The notes beneath the pieces were generated by a model. It searched no databases. It saw only the letters and a program-made list of their open reading frames with translations, and was not told where the DNA came from. A program made the position numbers and the translations under genes. From assembly GCA_016930915.1 (NCBI GenBank), contig JAFGFU010000014.1, positions 62,001-126,000 of the forward strand: a DNA stretch of 64,000 nt, given 5' to 3'. This document shows positions 5,030 through 21,059 of the stretch, piece after piece (within the stretch, counting starts at the first letter, position 1; every line of letters starts with the position of its first letter). Origin of the DNA: Campylobacterales bacterium. Lineage in GTDB: Bacteria > Campylobacterota > Campylobacteria > Campylobacterales > Sulfurospirillaceae.

Positions 5030-5553
5030 AAAAAATAATTGTAGGTATTAGTGGAGCTAGTGGTGTTGAATTAGGCTTAAAATTTCTTCATGCCCTTCCT
5101 TTAGAAATTGAAAAATACCTGATTGTCTCGGAACACGCAAAAATCGTTTTTAAGAAAGAAGCGAATATAACATTATTAGATAATGAAAATATTGGGGCTA
5201 TAACAGCTTCTGGTTCTTTTAAAACAGATGCTATGGTGATTGTTCCTTGTAGTATGAATACTTTGGCTAAAATTGCACATGGTATTGCGGATAATTTACT
5301 AACACGAAGTGCTGCAGTCATGATTAAGGAAAAACGCCCTCTTCTGTTGGCTCCTCGAGAAATGCCTTTTTCTGCTATTGCATTAGAAAATATGCTAAAA
5401 CTTTCGACATTGGGAATTCACATTGCTCCTCCTATTTTAGGCTATTATGCACAAACGGATACGCTTGATGCAATGGAAAATTTTTTAATTGGAAAATGGT
5501 TTGATCTTTTAGGTATTGAACACACACTTTTTCCTCGATGGGAGGGCGCATGA
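5026..5553 (+). CDS. ubiX: UbiX-family flavin prenyltransferase
   Basis: This enzyme makes prenylated FMN, the cofactor of UbiD-type decarboxylases acting in ubiquinone or menaquinone routes. The 175-residue protein starts with the Rossmann-like IVGISGASGVELGLKFL. It has DAMVIVPCSMNTLAKIAHGIADNLLTR near 70-95 and the KRPLLLAPREMPFSAIALENMLKLS segment, which hold the FMN and prenyl-phosphate binding residues of the family. It is a little shorter than typical UbiX (about 190). The ATG overlaps the flgA stop by 4 bases and the stop overlaps coaD, so translation is coupled. Confidence 0.93.
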   Translation: MKKIIVGISGASGVELGLKFLHALPLEIEKYLIVSEHAKIVFKKEANITLLDNENIGAITASGSFKTDAMVIVPCSMNTLAKIAHGIADNLLTRSAAVMIKEKRPLLLAPREMPFSAIALENMLKLSTLGIHIAPPILGYYAQTDTLDAMENFLIGKWFDLLGIEHTLFPRWEGA

Positions 5554-6032
5554 GAGTTGCAATTTATCCAGGTACATTTGATCCTATTACCAATGGGCAT
5601 ATGGATGTTATTAAGCGTGCTAGAAAGCTTTTTGATAAAGTCTTGGTTGCGGTAGCCATTTCTGAAGAAAAACGCCCTCTTTTTGATATTCAAACACGTG
5701 TTAAAATGGTAAAAGAGGCTATCGTTAATATGGATGGCGTTGATGTCGAACCTTTTGATGGATTATTGGTTAATTTTTCAAAATCTAAAAATATTAGAGT
5801 AATGATTCGTGGGCTTCGTGCGGTGAGTGACTTTGAGTTTGAACTTCAAATGGGCTATGCCAATGCTTCTTTATGGAGTGAAATAGAAACGGTTTATTTG
5901 ATGCCTAGTCTTAAAAATGCTTTTATTAGCTCTTCTGTGGTTCGTTCTATTGCTAAACATGGTGGAGATATCTCACATTTAGTGCCAGAAACAATTCAGC
6001 CTTATGTTCAAAGTAGGTTTACATGTATGTAA
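5550..6032 (+). CDS. coaD: pantetheine-phosphate adenylyltransferase
   Basis: CoaD transfers AMP from ATP to 4'-phosphopantetheine, the penultimate step of coenzyme A synthesis. The 160 residues begin MRVAIYPGTFDPITNGHMDVI, with the nucleotidyltransferase TxxH-like motif NGH. MIRGLRAVSDFEFELQMGYAN and the ISSSVVR signature are also present. The ATG at 5550 overlaps the ubiX stop (ATGA) and has GGAGG at 5541-5545. A GTG-type extension to 5538 is unlikely. The last codons overlap tmk by 10 bases. Confidence 0.96.
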   Translation: MRVAIYPGTFDPITNGHMDVIKRARKLFDKVLVAVAISEEKRPLFDIQTRVKMVKEAIVNMDGVDVEPFDGLLVNFSKSKNIRVMIRGLRAVSDFEFELQMGYANASLWSEIETVYLMPSLKNAFISSSVVRSIAKHGGDISHLVPETIQPYVQSRFTCM

Positions 6033-17574: not shown

Positions 17575-17799
17575 CTATCGAATGCGTTTGGTAAATAGTT
17601 TAATAACGCCATGTATAACCATACGAATTAAGCCAACAATTAGATAAACAATAAGTGTATAAAGCAGTGGATGGTAAGGCATGTGGTGGGTTGCTAAATG
17701 TTTAAAATGTTCAATAGGATGGGATGCCCATTGATTCATATGCATGCCCAATGCTAAAAAAACAAACAACAAAATAAAAATGACACTCTCTTTTTTCAT
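17575..17799 (-). CDS. small two-helix membrane protein of unknown function
   Basis: 74 residues with two hydrophobic segments (SVIFILLFVFLALGMHM and LLYTLIVYLIVGLIRMVIHG). They are joined by a histidine-rich linker (HPIEHFKHLATHHMPYHP) and followed by a basic tail (KLFTKRIR). The linker could face the periplasm and bind metal, but that is speculation. It is co-oriented with the Ppx/GppA gene and 11 bases upstream of it. Confidence 0.72.
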   Translation of the reverse strand: MKKESVIFILLFVFLALGMHMNQWASHPIEHFKHLATHHMPYHPLLYTLIVYLIVGLIRMVIHGVIKLFTKRIR

Positions 17800-17920
17800 C
17801 AGGTTTCACTTTTTGAGAAATAAAAGATGATTCTAAGAAAATAAAACTTAAGAGTAGGTTTTGTTCATGTTACATAATTGTAGTTTTTTCAGAAAACTAT
17901 AAACAAGTAAAATTCTTAAG

Positions 17921-17926
17921 TATAAT
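17921..17926 (+). promoter_or_regulatory. -10 box ahead of the sulfide:quinone oxidoreductase gene
   Basis: TATAAT lies 75 bases before the start codon. No regular -35 is visible. An imperfect inverted repeat (AGTTTTTTCAGAAAACT, 17882-17898) precedes it. Confidence 0.5.
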
Positions 17927-18001
17927 TTCACTTAACAAGGAAAACCTCAGATTATTGGAAGTAGAATGGGGGAATAATCAACAAAAAAGGACGGGTAATC
18001 T

Positions 18002-19471
18002 ATGCAATCAGATAATATCATCGAAGAAGTGCTTCGTGAGATTGAAAAACAAGAAAGCGTGCTTTCTCGCCGTGAAGCGATGAAACTTTTAGCACTCTCT
18101 CCTCTCGCGGCAGGCGTATTGGGAAGTGCTAGTACGACAACATCTGCTAAAGCAGCTTCAAATGCCAAGGGTAAAATTGTCATTGTCGGTGGGGGACTTG
18201 CGGGTGTTGCAACAGCTGCAAAATTGACGCATAATCTTTCCAATCCTGACATTACTATTATTGAGCCAAATCCAAAATCAGTTTCGTATCAGCCTGGTCA
18301 GACATTGATCGCCGCTGGTGTATGGCAAAAAAGTGATATCACGTATGAAACCGAAAAATTTATTCCCGATGGTGTGAAGTGGATTAAAGACTCAGTCATT
18401 GGCTTTAACCCTGATGCCAATAAAGTCAGTTTGAAAAATGGTACTGAAGTGAGTTATGATTATTTAATTGTTGCAACAGGGTTAATGCTCAATTTTGGAG
18501 CTATTAAAGGATTAGAAGGTGAAATCACTTCCTCTGGAGAAAATGAAATCGTTAAAAAGAAAATAGGCAAAGAAGGGGTTTATTCTATCTATTTTGCAGA
18601 TGGTGCCGTCGATACCTACAAAGGTATTCAAGAACTTATTGTTAAGGCTAAGGCGCACAAAGGCAGTGAAAAACTACAAGCAATTTTTACAGACCCAGAC
18701 ACTGCGATCAAGTGCGGTGGTGCACCTAAAAAAATTATGTATATTGCCCATGATTTATTGAGCAAAGCGGGTGTGAGAGACAAAGTTGAACTGACCTTCT
18801 GTCCTTCAGGTGATAAAATGTTTGGTGTGCCTGAATACCATGAAGCCATTTTAGAGCAGTTTAAAGTCAGAGATTTTAAATGGGAATACAAAACCAATTT
18901 AGTTGGGATAGATACGGAAAAGAAAGTTGCAACGTTTGAGAAAAAATGGCTTGAAAAAGGCGAATACGACCAAGATTTAGAAGAGTACACAATGGTTGTT
19001 AAGAGCCAAAATGTTGAGAAAAAATATGACTTTATTCATATTACTCCACCACAAAAAGCCTCTGATATTGTTGGAAAATCACCTCTTGGTTCTAGCAAAG
19101 GGTGGATGCCTGTGGTTAAAGAGACCTTGCAACATGTCAAATATAAAAATGTTTTTGGAATTGGGGATATTGCAGCGCTTCCTATGGGCAAAACAGGTGG
19201 AAGTGCGAGAAAACAATACGGTGTTGTCGTTGATAATCTCATCGCTGTGATGGAGAAAAAAGAGAAATTACCTGCCGCATATGATGGGTATACGGTATGT
19301 CCATTGATTACGAGTTTAGGCACTATTATGATGGCAGAATTTAACTGGACAGCAAAACCAACACCTTCGTTTCCCCTTGATCCAACACAAGAGCGATGGA
19401 TATGGTGGTTAGTAAAAGTCTATGCCTTAAAACCAATGACTATCTATGGTATGCTCTCAGGGCGCGCTTAA
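18002..19471 (+). CDS. sqr: Tat-exported sulfide:quinone oxidoreductase (mitochondrial-like type)
   Basis: A flavoprotein that oxidises sulfide and passes electrons to quinone. After a 23-residue lead comes a twin-arginine segment (SRREAMKLLALSPLAAGVLG) ending near AKA, so export by Tat is likely. The FAD motif is KIVIVGGGLAGVATAAKL, followed by YQPGQTLIAAG. The two redox cysteines of the family are present: Cys238 in IKCGGAPKKIMY and Cys433 in TVCPLITS. HITPPQKASDIV, NVFGIGDIAALPMGKTGG and the C-terminal amphipathic end match the type that includes human SQOR. The 489-residue length includes the leader. Two cytochrome genes follow and probably take part in the electron transfer. Confidence 0.85.
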   Translation: MQSDNIIEEVLREIEKQESVLSRREAMKLLALSPLAAGVLGSASTTTSAKAASNAKGKIVIVGGGLAGVATAAKLTHNLSNPDITIIEPNPKSVSYQPGQTLIAAGVWQKSDITYETEKFIPDGVKWIKDSVIGFNPDANKVSLKNGTEVSYDYLIVATGLMLNFGAIKGLEGEITSSGENEIVKKKIGKEGVYSIYFADGAVDTYKGIQELIVKAKAHKGSEKLQAIFTDPDTAIKCGGAPKKIMYIAHDLLSKAGVRDKVELTFCPSGDKMFGVPEYHEAILEQFKVRDFKWEYKTNLVGIDTEKKVATFEKKWLEKGEYDQDLEEYTMVVKSQNVEKKYDFIHITPPQKASDIVGKSPLGSSKGWMPVVKETLQHVKYKNVFGIGDIAALPMGKTGGSARKQYGVVVDNLIAVMEKKEKLPAAYDGYTVCPLITSLGTIMMAEFNWTAKPTPSFPLDPTQERWIWWLVKVYALKPMTIYGMLSGRA

Positions 19472-19500
19472 TTTAAGAAATGACACATAAAGGAAAAAAA

Positions 19501-19875
19501 ATGAAAAAAATAAATGTAGTAGGTTCCCTCATTGTTGCCTTGGTTGTTTTAACTGGCTGTGATTCGAAGCCAAAAGAAGAAGTAAAATCGTACAAATATA
19601 CCACGGATGTTGTCTATAAAGAGACATGTTTGCATTGCCATGGTGCAAAAGGAGAAGGTGTTGCTGAGAAAAAAAGTCCTGCCATAAATAAGCTAAGTAT
19701 TCAAGAATTGGAGATGGCATTGTTTGACATTAAAAATGGTGGGCTGGGTCAATCTACTGCTAGTGAACATGAAGTGATGGAGCACAATATGAAAAAACTC
19801 TCTGAAAAAGGGTATGACTACGATATTAAAGCGATGGCAACGTATATTTTCAATACTTTTCATTCCTCAAAATAG
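19501..19875 (+). CDS. monohaem c-type cytochrome lipoprotein
   Basis: From the ATG at 19501 (AAAGGA upstream) it has 124 residues. A lipoprotein signal with LVVLTGC puts the lipidated Cys at 20. A single haem site CLHCH is at 43-47, and the class I cytochrome fold ends in MATYIFNTF. Methionines in HEVMEHNMKKL could serve as the sixth haem ligand. It would be anchored in a membrane facing the periplasm, between the flavoprotein and the cytochrome b encoded on each side. An upstream start at 19480 would only lengthen the signal peptide. Confidence 0.88.
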   Translation: MKKINVVGSLIVALVVLTGCDSKPKEEVKSYKYTTDVVYKETCLHCHGAKGEGVAEKKSPAINKLSIQELEMALFDIKNGGLGQSTASEHEVMEHNMKKLSEKGYDYDIKAMATYIFNTFHSSK

Positions 19876-19886
19876 AACGGATAGGG

Positions 19887-21059
19887 ATGTTTTTTGATCA
19901 AAAATCGCGTCAAAAAACATCCACATATAGTATGAAAAATTCAGAAAATAGTATCTTTGTTTGGCCGTTGTGTACACGTATTATTCATTGGATTATTGCA
20001 CTCTCTTTTTTCTTTGCCTTTGTAACTTCTTTTTTTTATACTCTCTATACATGGCATATTTGTTTTGGCTTTATTTTTGGGATAGTCTTACTTTTTCGGA
20101 TTATTTGGGGATTTATTGGACCTTATTATGCAAGGTTTAAGACGTTCCAACTTAGTTTTAATGCTTTGAAACACTATTTTGTAGAAAAAATACAAAACAG
20201 ATGGCGTAAAATTTATGCGGGGCATAATGCAGCATCTAGTTGGTTTACGATACTTGTTCTTTTTTTGGGTAGTTTTATTGTTCTAACAGGTTTGTTACTA
20301 CAAGGAACGCAAGAAGCCAATGGACTCTTTGGTTTTTTAAATCAAGATTTTTTTCAATCCTCTTTTACCTTTGCTTTTTTGCATCGTTTTGTTTCCTATT
20401 TTCTTTTTGCTTGTGTGATGGTTCATGTTATAGGTGTGTTAATTGAGCAGTTTTACCATAAAACCGATATGGTGTTTGCCATGATTACAGGGTATAAAAA
20501 GGCAGAAGGTCAAGATACGCAGGTCTCTTTAGTGTTGAAATTTTTTGCTTATGGCATTATTATGGTGTGTGTTGGTGTGATTTTACATGTAAAAAGTAAT
20601 GGGGAGACATTTTTAACACATACGCATTTTGAGAGACATGATTTTCAAAGTGAAAACAGTGCGTATGAGCGTTGTTCAAATTGCCATAAGCCCTATCCTC
20701 CTTTTATGCTACCTAAAGATTCGTGGGTGAAAATCATGCAGGGATTAGACAATCATTTTGGTGAAAAAATTACCGAACATAATATTACAAAAGCGGAACA
20801 ACAAAGTATCCAGGATTATTTGGTGGCACATAGCGCTGAGAGCTCCAGTCACAAATTAGCGTTTAAAACACTGCATTCTTTAGGAGAGCTTCGACCCCTT
20901 TCCATGAGTAAAGTTCCTTATTGGAGAGAGGTGCATCATAAAATTGATAAAAAGGTATTTGATTCTTTACATGTAAAAAGCGCTGCAAATTGTTTTGCGT
21001 GCCATCAAAATTTTGAATGGGGTATTTTAGACGCTACGCATATTCATCTTCCTCAATAG
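19887..21059 (+). CDS. cytochrome b561-type membrane protein with C-terminal dihaem c domain
   Basis: A 390-residue apparent fusion. The first part has four membrane helices with likely haem-b ligands at His34 (TRIIHWIIALSF), His57 (YTWHICFGF) and later histidines (FLHRFVSYFLF, MVHVIGVLIEQF). A fifth helix (FFAYGIIMVCVGVILHV) leads to a tail with two c-haem sites, CSNCH at 263-267 and CFACH at 369-373. The layout recalls b561 plus dihaem cytochrome c pairs of other proteobacteria joined in one chain. It probably exchanges electrons between quinol and periplasmic c-haems. The start may instead be the ATG at 19932. Two TTACATGTAA copies encode LHVK. Confidence 0.82.
   Translation: MFFDQKSRQKTSTYSMKNSENSIFVWPLCTRIIHWIIALSFFFAFVTSFFYTLYTWHICFGFIFGIVLLFRIIWGFIGPYYARFKTFQLSFNALKHYFVEKIQNRWRKIYAGHNAASSWFTILVLFLGSFIVLTGLLLQGTQEANGLFGFLNQDFFQSSFTFAFLHRFVSYFLFACVMVHVIGVLIEQFYHKTDMVFAMITGYKKAEGQDTQVSLVLKFFAYGIIMVCVGVILHVKSNGETFLTHTHFERHDFQSENSAYERCSNCHKPYPPFMLPKDSWVKIMQGLDNHFGEKITEHNITKAEQQSIQDYLVAHSAESSSHKLAFKTLHSLGELRPLSMSKVPYWREVHHKIDKKVFDSLHVKSAANCFACHQNFEWGILDATHIHLPQ

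What the first reader, a model, noticed from the sequence alone, without database searches (positions are those of the whole stretch)
18002..21059. Tat-exported sulfide:quinone oxidoreductase with lipoprotein c and b561/dihaem cytochromes
Three same-direction genes encode a mitochondrial-type SQR with a twin-arginine signal, a monohaem lipoprotein cytochrome and a five-helix b-type cytochrome fused to a dihaem tail. SQR normally needs only quinone. The two cytochromes suggest a periplasmic route that either takes electrons from the flavoprotein to c-haems or links quinol to an unknown acceptor. The trio looks like a compact respiratory module that I do not recognise as described.
Basis: partly seen in the sequence, partly recalled or inferred. 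Interest (0 to 1): 0.55.

Follow-up and report, generated by a model that had tools for sequence, protein, structure and literature searches.

The report
Exported sulfide oxidase with cytochrome partners
A bacterium of the genus Sulfurospirillum carries a sulfide-oxidising enzyme that is shipped to the cell's outer compartment, in one operon with two haem proteins and next to a tiny unnamed membrane protein that often accompanies this enzyme in related bacteria; the parts are known kinds, the combination looks new.

Summary
18002-21059 encodes a Tat-exported type II (mitochondrial-type) sulfide:quinone oxidoreductase, a monohaem lipoprotein cytochrome c and a cytochrome b561 fused to a dihaem cytochrome c, with 29- and 11-base gaps. 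The trio lies within 3 kb on one strand in 27 of 397 Campylobacterota genomes: 16 of 16 sampled from the window's genus (Sulfurospirillum) and 11 in five other genera. It is not phylum-wide; most type II SQR loci lack this cytochrome pair. Parts are published: Tat motifs on such SQRs (Han & Perner 2015) and the CytB/dihaem fusion in SHP operons (Meyer 2010). Most likely SQR reduces menaquinone at the periplasmic face while the cytochromes exchange electrons between quinone pool and periplasmic c-haems (inferred). Direct SQR-to-cytochrome transfer and reverse polysulfide reduction stay open.

The parts
17575..17799 (-). 74-aa two-helix inner-membrane protein, associate of type II SQR (proposed new small family), divergent from the SQR gene
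   Evidence: Homologues in 110 of 397 Campylobacterota genomes, 104 of them among the 128 with a strong type II SQR hit; 76 of 112 copies within 3 kb of it; invariant H20, P28, H43, P44 in 27 of 27 aligned; two hydrophobic stretches, about 1-25 and 41-70; AlphaFold helices 2-37 and 44-73, pLDDT 82, pTM 0.40; no Pfam hit for it at E 0.1
17800..18001 (.). divergent intergenic region between the small gene and the SQR gene
   Evidence: Match-to-match gap is 199-211 bases in the 16 genomes of the genus in the sample; promoter-like sites not above chance
18002..19471 (+). Tat-exported type II (mitochondrial-type) sulfide:quinone oxidoreductase, 489 aa
   Evidence: PF07992; human SQR E about 1e-72, Z 51.5; Tat motif; cysteines C238 and C433 invariant in 20 of 20 and in 75 of 75
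19501..19875 (+). monohaem class I lipoprotein cytochrome c, 124 aa (upstream alternative start 19480)
   Evidence: PF00034, CLHCH, LTGC lipobox; M[EA]HN motif with the probable Met ligand in 31 of 34 relatives
19887..21059 (+). cytochrome b561 fused to dihaem cytochrome c (CytB/mDHC chimera), 390 aa (alternative start 19932)
   Evidence: PF01292 + PF09626; solved DHC relatives 2fw5, 2fwt, 3u99; candidate b- and c-haem ligands invariant in 50 of 50

Best explanation
The locus is a periplasmic sulfide-oxidation module. The SQR folds with FAD in the cytoplasm, is exported by Tat, sits on the periplasmic face of the inner membrane by its C-terminal helix, probably with the 74-aa hairpin protein as anchor or docking partner, oxidises sulfide at the two-cysteine site and reduces menaquinone. 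The CytB/mDHC protein is a four-haem conduit that exchanges electrons between the quinone pool and the periplasm, and the lipoprotein cytochrome c carries them on to c-linked acceptors (nitrite reductase, haem-copper oxidase). Sulfane sulfur is handed to periplasmic acceptors such as the three-domain rhodanese found beside SQR or Psr-like operons elsewhere. Shown: gene content, export motif, conserved cysteines and candidate haem ligands, co-conservation, co-occurrence of the small protein. Inferred: enzymatic activity, menaquinone as acceptor, direction of electron flow, the role of the small protein and of the rhodanese.
For: Sequence and predicted fold nearest to human SQR (Z 51.5), a C-terminal helix H466-484, both cysteines invariant. 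Trio in 27 of 397 genomes. CytB/mDHC keeps all candidate haem ligands; its relatives in SHP operons are inferred in print to carry electrons from quinol through CytB and DHCs to a periplasmic haem protein. The genome has two PF00033 cytochrome b loci, one COX1-family oxidase over the cut-off and one NrfA-family gene. Small protein: 104 of 128 genomes with a strong SQR hit against 6 of 269 others; at a looser SQR threshold (E 1e-50) 105 of 182 against 5 of 215; by genus 32 of 35 against 0 of 33 (hand count); of the 76 adjacent copies 58 lie downstream on the same strand, 42 of them within 100 bases, and 17 are divergent. Rhodanese domains in 5 of 5 tested neighbours of SQR (3) or psrABC-like genes (2).
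Against: Most listed type II SQR places have no such cytochrome pair, so the pair is not needed for SQR in general. Seven genomes have SQR plus the cytochrome without CytB/mDHC, which fits direct SQR-to-c transfer better. G167 and G343 have the cytochrome and the fusion beside psrABC-like genes without an adjacent SQR, so they may serve Psr-type chemistry. In G123 the cytochrome c gene is broken by a 23-base deletion although SQR and CytB/mDHC are open. On the SQR tree the trio label needs 7 changes, at least 5 on well-supported branches. Other bacterial SQR structures score no better than flavocytochromes (Z 38.4-40.2 against 38.6-39.6), so only the human enzyme separates the two classes. 24 of 128 SQR-positive genomes lack the small protein, and 36 of its 112 copies are not near the SQR. 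No expression or biochemical data were seen, and the counts are not corrected for relatedness.
Confidence: 0.47

Rival explanations
1. Flavocytochrome-like sulfide dehydrogenase: the exported flavoprotein hands electrons directly to the lipoprotein cytochrome c, and CytB/mDHC carries them into the quinone pool or to other acceptors.
For: Tat export plus a neighbouring c-type cytochrome is the layout of flavocytochrome c (recalled); 34 of 150 listed SQR places have this cytochrome near, 7 without CytB/mDHC, in 4 of these 7 as a two-haem version; three further printed SQR loci (L159, L160, L163) have other one-haem genes beside them, one of them tested and PF00034.
Against: Sequence and fold nearest to human SQR; a C-terminal helix is kept; most listed SQR places lack this cytochrome.
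Confidence: 0.21
2. The module runs in reverse as a polysulfide or sulfur reductase: menaquinol feeds CytB/mDHC and the lipoprotein cytochrome, and SQR (or neighbouring PsrABC-like enzyme) reduces polysulfide.
For: psrABC-like genes follow the trio in 9 of 11 loci outside the genus and sit beside the cytochrome and fusion in G167 and G343; reverse action of Sqr is discussed for Sulfurovum and Thermovibrio (PMC10045233, passages); Sulfurospirillum respires sulfur compounds (PMC4794192, passages).
Against: In the Sulfurospirillum loci searched (window, L040, L155) no psr-like genes adjoin the trio; relatives lie elsewhere. A Psr cluster of S. multivorans has itself been proposed to work as a sulfide dehydrogenase.
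Confidence: 0.2
3. Sulfide detoxification or signalling module, not a respiratory one; the cytochromes are an electron sink.
For: Type II SQRs are described as having low, millimolar sulfide affinity and are linked to heavy-metal tolerance and signalling in other organisms (PMC4584964, passages).
Against: A four-haem conduit plus lipoprotein cytochrome kept in the 16 sampled genomes of the genus (one with a broken cytochrome gene) is costly for pure detoxification (inference).
Confidence: 0.12

Closest known systems
Type II sulfide:quinone oxidoreductase (human SQOR; epsilonproteobacterial type II SQR)
   Same: Fold (Z 51.5), 35% identity over 392 residues, both conserved cysteines, a C-terminal helix; Tat motif reported for all epsilonproteobacterial type II SQRs listed by Han & Perner 2015
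   Different: In this genus linked to a lipoprotein cytochrome c, a CytB/dihaem protein and a 74-aa hairpin protein; the model's last residue aligns with human residue 435, so the extreme C-terminus of the human enzyme is missing
SHP operon: CytB/mDHC chimera + soluble DHC + sphaeroides haem protein (Meyer et al. 2010)
   Same: Same b561-DHC fusion with all candidate haem ligands; same idea of a quinone-to-periplasm haem wire
   Different: No SHP (PF09086) and no soluble DHC in the window trio; on the tree the 21 SHP-operon-type rows are one side of a branch (SH-aLRT 98); partners are SQR and a class I lipoprotein cytochrome
Flavocytochrome c sulfide dehydrogenase (FccAB)
   Same: Exported flavoprotein beside a c-type cytochrome (layout recalled)
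   Different: Flavoprotein nearer human SQR than FccB; monohaem lipoprotein; extra CytB/mDHC and hairpin protein
PsrABC / PhsABC polysulfide-thiosulfate reductase
   Same: Operon neighbour in 9 of 11 trio loci outside the genus; best solved relative of the neighbour's large subunit is 2vpw, deposited as thiosulfate reductase (E 3e-105)
   Different: Not part of the window operon; relatives lie elsewhere in the window's genome

Membership tests
Type II SQR | FAD-binding pyridine-nucleotide-disulphide oxidoreductase fold nearest to mitochondrial SQR | tested here: met
Type II SQR | Two redox-active cysteines of mitochondrial SQR | tested here: met
   C238 and C433 align with the human cysteines and are invariant in 20 of 20 and 75 of 75; that the human ones are the redox pair is recalled
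Type II SQR | C-terminal membrane-binding helices | tested here: inconclusive
   One C-terminal helix H466-484, block pLDDT about 69-85; aligned to human residue 435
Type II SQR | Sulfide:quinone oxidoreductase activity | not testable with these tools
   No assay possible
Flavocytochrome c sulfide dehydrogenase | FCSD flavin-binding domain PF09242 | tested here: inconclusive
   No PF09242 hit for the protein at E 0.1 and none in the genome, but that genome search rang in no control genome
Flavocytochrome c sulfide dehydrogenase | Direct electron transfer to a cytochrome subunit | not testable with these tools
   Needs biochemistry
CytB/mDHC chimera | b561 domain fused to DHC with conserved b- and c-haem ligands | tested here: met
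SHP operon | Adjacent SHP (PF09086) and soluble DHC | tested here: not met
   The window cytochrome is PF00034 and did not hit PF09086 at E 0.1; one-haem genes of SHP-type operons do (3 of 3 tested)
Class I lipoprotein cytochrome c | Single CxxCH, lipobox, Met-type distal loop | tested here: met
   the Met ligand is inferred from the alignment
SQR-associated small membrane protein (proposed here) | Two-helix hairpin with invariant H, P, HP, found mainly with type II SQR | tested here: met

The most novel reading that the evidence does not exclude
Exported type II SQRs of Campylobacterota are not stand-alone monotopic enzymes but have a dedicated small membrane subunit (the 74-aa hairpin), whose two invariant histidines on the periplasmic side form a quinone or haem b site; with the lipoprotein cytochrome and CytB/mDHC it makes a sulfide:cytochrome c oxidoreductase supercomplex that bypasses the bc1 complex.
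Probability: 0.22. Interest if true: 0.65.

Novelty: new variant of a known kind. Interest (0 to 1): 0.42.

Why it matters
Sulfurospirillum is discussed mostly as a reducer of sulfur compounds. One comparative genome paper explains possible sulfide oxidation by a reversible Psr cluster and its main text does not contain the term sqr (PMC4794192), while two others list an SQR in Sulfurospirillum genomes without its neighbours in the passages I saw (PMC7565565; PMC11406935). A conserved exported SQR with its own electron wire in every sampled genome of the genus gives a concrete, testable route. The small hairpin protein is a candidate missing partner for a class of bacterial SQRs, and the CytB/mDHC branch suggests that this haem wire has been attached to sulfur enzymes as well as to SHP.

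Tried and rejected
FCSD membership: considered because of Tat export plus a cytochrome; weakened by sequence and fold; the whole-genome PF09242 search is uninformative because no control rang.

SHP operon membership: suggested by the fused b/dihaem protein; rejected for the window because the cytochrome is not PF09086 and the branches separate. L112 (G167) is a long branch (1.77) whose place is unsure; one of the 21 SHP-type rows (L037) was classed by identity alone, its context was not printed.

Trio as a universal unit of type II SQR: rejected; it is in 27 of 128 genomes with a strong SQR hit, and four SQRs of unnamed genus g6 nest inside the Sulfurospirillum SQR clade without the cytochromes or a small-protein hit.

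Promoter or terminator argument for the operon: scans are at chance level. A haem-b reading of the small protein from the NCBIfam sdhC_b558 hit (17.2 bits, cut-off 96) is far below cut-off and not used. Pfam scans of 27 small-protein members gave only scattered weak hits (best family count 4 of 27, DUF3975, best E 0.008; lowest E 0.002 in one member).

Thresholds and rows dropped: type II SQR was counted at E 1e-110, where stops listing places (150 rows, 128 genomes); 54 more genomes have a best hit between 1e-110 and 1e-50, only one of them with the small protein. Of, the 40 best cytochrome places were used; second matches in the same genome and weaker rows were left out. Of, 99 near-full-length fusion rows were used; shorter and weaker rows were dropped. 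Genus counts were made by hand. The SQR tree (quick method, no bootstrap) holds 75 rows from 72 loci, not all 150 places. Genomes of the genus met only (G397-G403, G398 etc.) were not examined for the trio.

Literature: ten answered searches of the held open-access library turned up, in what I saw, no description of this SQR/cytochrome/CytB-mDHC gene set or of the small protein; most subscription papers are not held. Seen as passages only: PMC2909971, PMC4584964, PMC11406935, PMC4674564, PMC4584990, PMC4794192, PMC6682613, PMC10045233, PMC12403661, PMC7565565. Recalled, not seen: Eisenmann et al. 1995; genome sizes of S. deleyianum and S. multivorans; FccAB layout.
Full report
Setting. The window is part of a 2.23 Mb draft genome (37 contigs, 99% complete). 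Its SQR matches named Sulfurospirillum records at 81-83% (S. cavolei UCH003, Sulfurospirillum sp. SCADC) and an epsilonproteobacterial MAG at 97%. The contigs of those two named records have the same lengths as contigs of G209 and G109, which one search places in the window's genus, so the genus is Sulfurospirillum.

The three genes. The SQR is nearest to human mitochondrial SQR in sequence (E about 1e-72; flavocytochrome c 9e-19) and in predicted fold (Z 51.5, rmsd 1.6 A, 392 residues). Other bacterial SQRs and flavocytochromes score alike (Z 38.4-40.2 and 38.6-39.6), so the argument rests on the human-type enzyme. The two cysteines that align with the human pair are invariant in 20 of 20 relatives, Bacteroidota included, and in 75 of 75 Campylobacterota rows. 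A simple pattern finds the twin-arginine motif in the first 60 residues of 73 of 75 SQR proteins; the two misses have long upstream starts in my ORF calls. That epsilonproteobacterial type II SQRs carry Tat motifs is in print (PMC4584964, passages). The cytochrome is a class I lipoprotein with one haem; an M[EA]HN motif is present in 31 of 34 relatives (missing in a truncated copy, L010, and in L109 and L110), and its Met is the likely sixth ligand (inference). The third protein is a b561-dihaem c fusion with every candidate ligand invariant in 50 of 50.

Conservation. In one sample of 397 Campylobacterota genomes, 27 have SQR, cytochrome and fusion within 3 kb on one strand: 16 of 16 of the window's genus and 11 in genera g12, g41, g49, g52 and g58. 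Of the 99 near-full-length fusion rows used, 28 have the cytochrome near and 27 also the SQR. Seven genomes have SQR plus cytochrome only (in 4 of 7 a two-haem version); G167 has cytochrome plus fusion without SQR. On a tree of 75 SQRs the trio label needs 7 changes (at least 5 on starred branches) against a shuffled mean of 22: clustered, but gained or lost several times. On a tree of 50 fusion proteins the 21 SHP-operon-type rows are one side of a branch (SH-aLRT 98). In 20 printed contexts of that second type a soluble dihaem gene is adjacent in 20 and a one-haem gene beside it in 17; 3 of 3 tested are PF09086, the SHP family. The fusion protein and its proposed quinol-to-periplasm path are published for SHP operons, with such chimeras named for Campylobacter fetus, Arcobacter butzleri and Wolinella (PMC2909971, passages). 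The window genome gave a single match to the fusion, the trio's own.

Context. In 11 of 12 printed Sulfurospirillum-type maps a pdxJ-like gene follows the trio, directly or after one small gene; L045 is the exception. Gene names pdxJ, ppx, pyrG and recJ are recognised by eye, not searched. In 9 of 11 other trio loci a psrABC-like operon follows (not in L093 and L100). In the one taken for family searches (L095) it encodes a Tat-type molybdopterin enzyme (best solved relative 2vpw, E 3e-105; PhsA model E 1e-148 but below its cut-off), an FeS protein and an NrfD-family protein. In the window genome a relative of this PsrA lies at C17:86528-88948, with relatives of PsrB and weakly of PsrC beside it. 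Neighbouring genes of about 400 aa beside SQR (3) or psrABC-like genes (2) have rhodanese domains in 5 of 5 tested.

The small protein. 202 bases upstream of the SQR, divergent, lies a 74-aa gene (17575-17799, minus). Its family is present in 110 of 397 genomes; 104 of them are among the 128 with a strong type II SQR hit, 6 are not (Fisher p 1e-63). If all 182 genomes with a hit at E 1e-50 or better are counted as SQR-positive, it is 105 of 182 against 5 of 215 (p 6e-39), so the link is with the strong, human-like type. By genus it is 32 of 35 against 0 of 33 (p 3e-16; hand count). None of these tests corrects for relatedness. Of 112 copies, 76 lie within 3 kb of the SQR; 58 are downstream on the same strand (42 within 100 bases), 17 divergent (the 16 genomes of the genus and G264), 1 upstream on the same strand. 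The other 36 are farther away or on another contig; in three genomes of family f8 that I read (G252, G319, G333) the gene sits among unrelated genes. Flanking genes differ between families, so the pairing is not one frozen block. The prediction is two helices (pLDDT 82, but pTM only 0.40) with positive ends, hence probably both ends in the cytoplasm and the loop with invariant H20, P28, H43, P44 towards the periplasm, where the SQR would be (inference). No convincing Pfam family fits.

Mechanism. Best reading: sulfide to SQR to menaquinone; the fusion protein and lipoprotein link the quinone pool to periplasmic c-haems. An NrfA-family gene, a COX1-family oxidase and two PF00033 cytochrome b loci are in the genome. 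The evidence against is real: most listed SQR places lack this cytochrome pair; seven have the cytochrome without the fusion; cytochrome and fusion sit with psrABC-like genes in G167 and G343; and in G123 the cytochrome gene has a 23-base frame-breaking deletion. By its size, 2,306,351 bases, G123 may be S. deleyianum DSM 6946 (recalled), an organism I recall as growing with sulfide and nitrate (Eisenmann et al. 1995, not seen); if both hold, the lipoprotein is dispensable there or the sequence is in error. SQR genes in Sulfurospirillum are themselves known (PMC7565565; PMC11406935; passages).

Verdict. A real, conserved gene set made of known protein kinds in a combination for which I found no description in the searches listed, plus a candidate new small SQR partner. 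New variant of a known kind; interest 0.42. After checking against the calls I lowered the best explanation from 0.48 to 0.47 and raised two rivals slightly, because three more SQR loci have other one-haem genes nearby and because bacterial SQRs and flavocytochromes are equally distant by fold.

Noticed in passing
L153, about 5410-5840 (G123): The lipoprotein cytochrome c gene is broken by a 23-base deletion after the haem motif, while the SQR and CytB/mDHC genes beside it are open.
   Followed up: partly
L094-L098, L101-L104; L099, L112: psrABC-like operon directly downstream of the trio in 9 of 11 loci outside the genus, and beside cytochrome and CytB/mDHC without SQR in G167 (L112) and G343 (L099).
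   Followed up: partly
L136, L151, L156, L186, L187: About 400-aa proteins with three rhodanese matches, some with a lipobox, next to exported SQR or psrABC-like genes: likely periplasmic sulfane-sulfur acceptors.
   Followed up: partly
L135 3571-3894; L186 11203-11520: A probably secreted protein of about 105 aa (GQKLxxKxLK near the mature start) beside SQR in genus g12 and beside psrABC-like/rhodanese genes in the window genome; no Pfam hit at E 0.01. That the two are homologous was judged by eye.
   Followed up: no
L082, L085, L086, L087: Four SQRs of unnamed genus g6 nest inside the Sulfurospirillum SQR clade but lack the cytochromes and have no small-protein hit in their genomes, suggesting transfer of the SQR alone.
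   Followed up: partly
L101 6984-7556: In genus g58 a gene with one CxxCH lies between the SQR and a two-haem version of the cytochrome; the one tested is Tll0287-like (PF11845).
   Followed up: no
L058-L062: Bacteroidota (Parabacteroides, Alistipes, Muribaculaceae and others) carry SQR relatives at about 35-41% identity with both cysteines, some with a Tat-like start; no small-protein hit within the fetched flanks.
   Followed up: no
L159, L160, L163: Other one-haem genes near the SQR in families f4 and f8; the one tested (L159 6360-6716) is PF00034.
   Followed up: no
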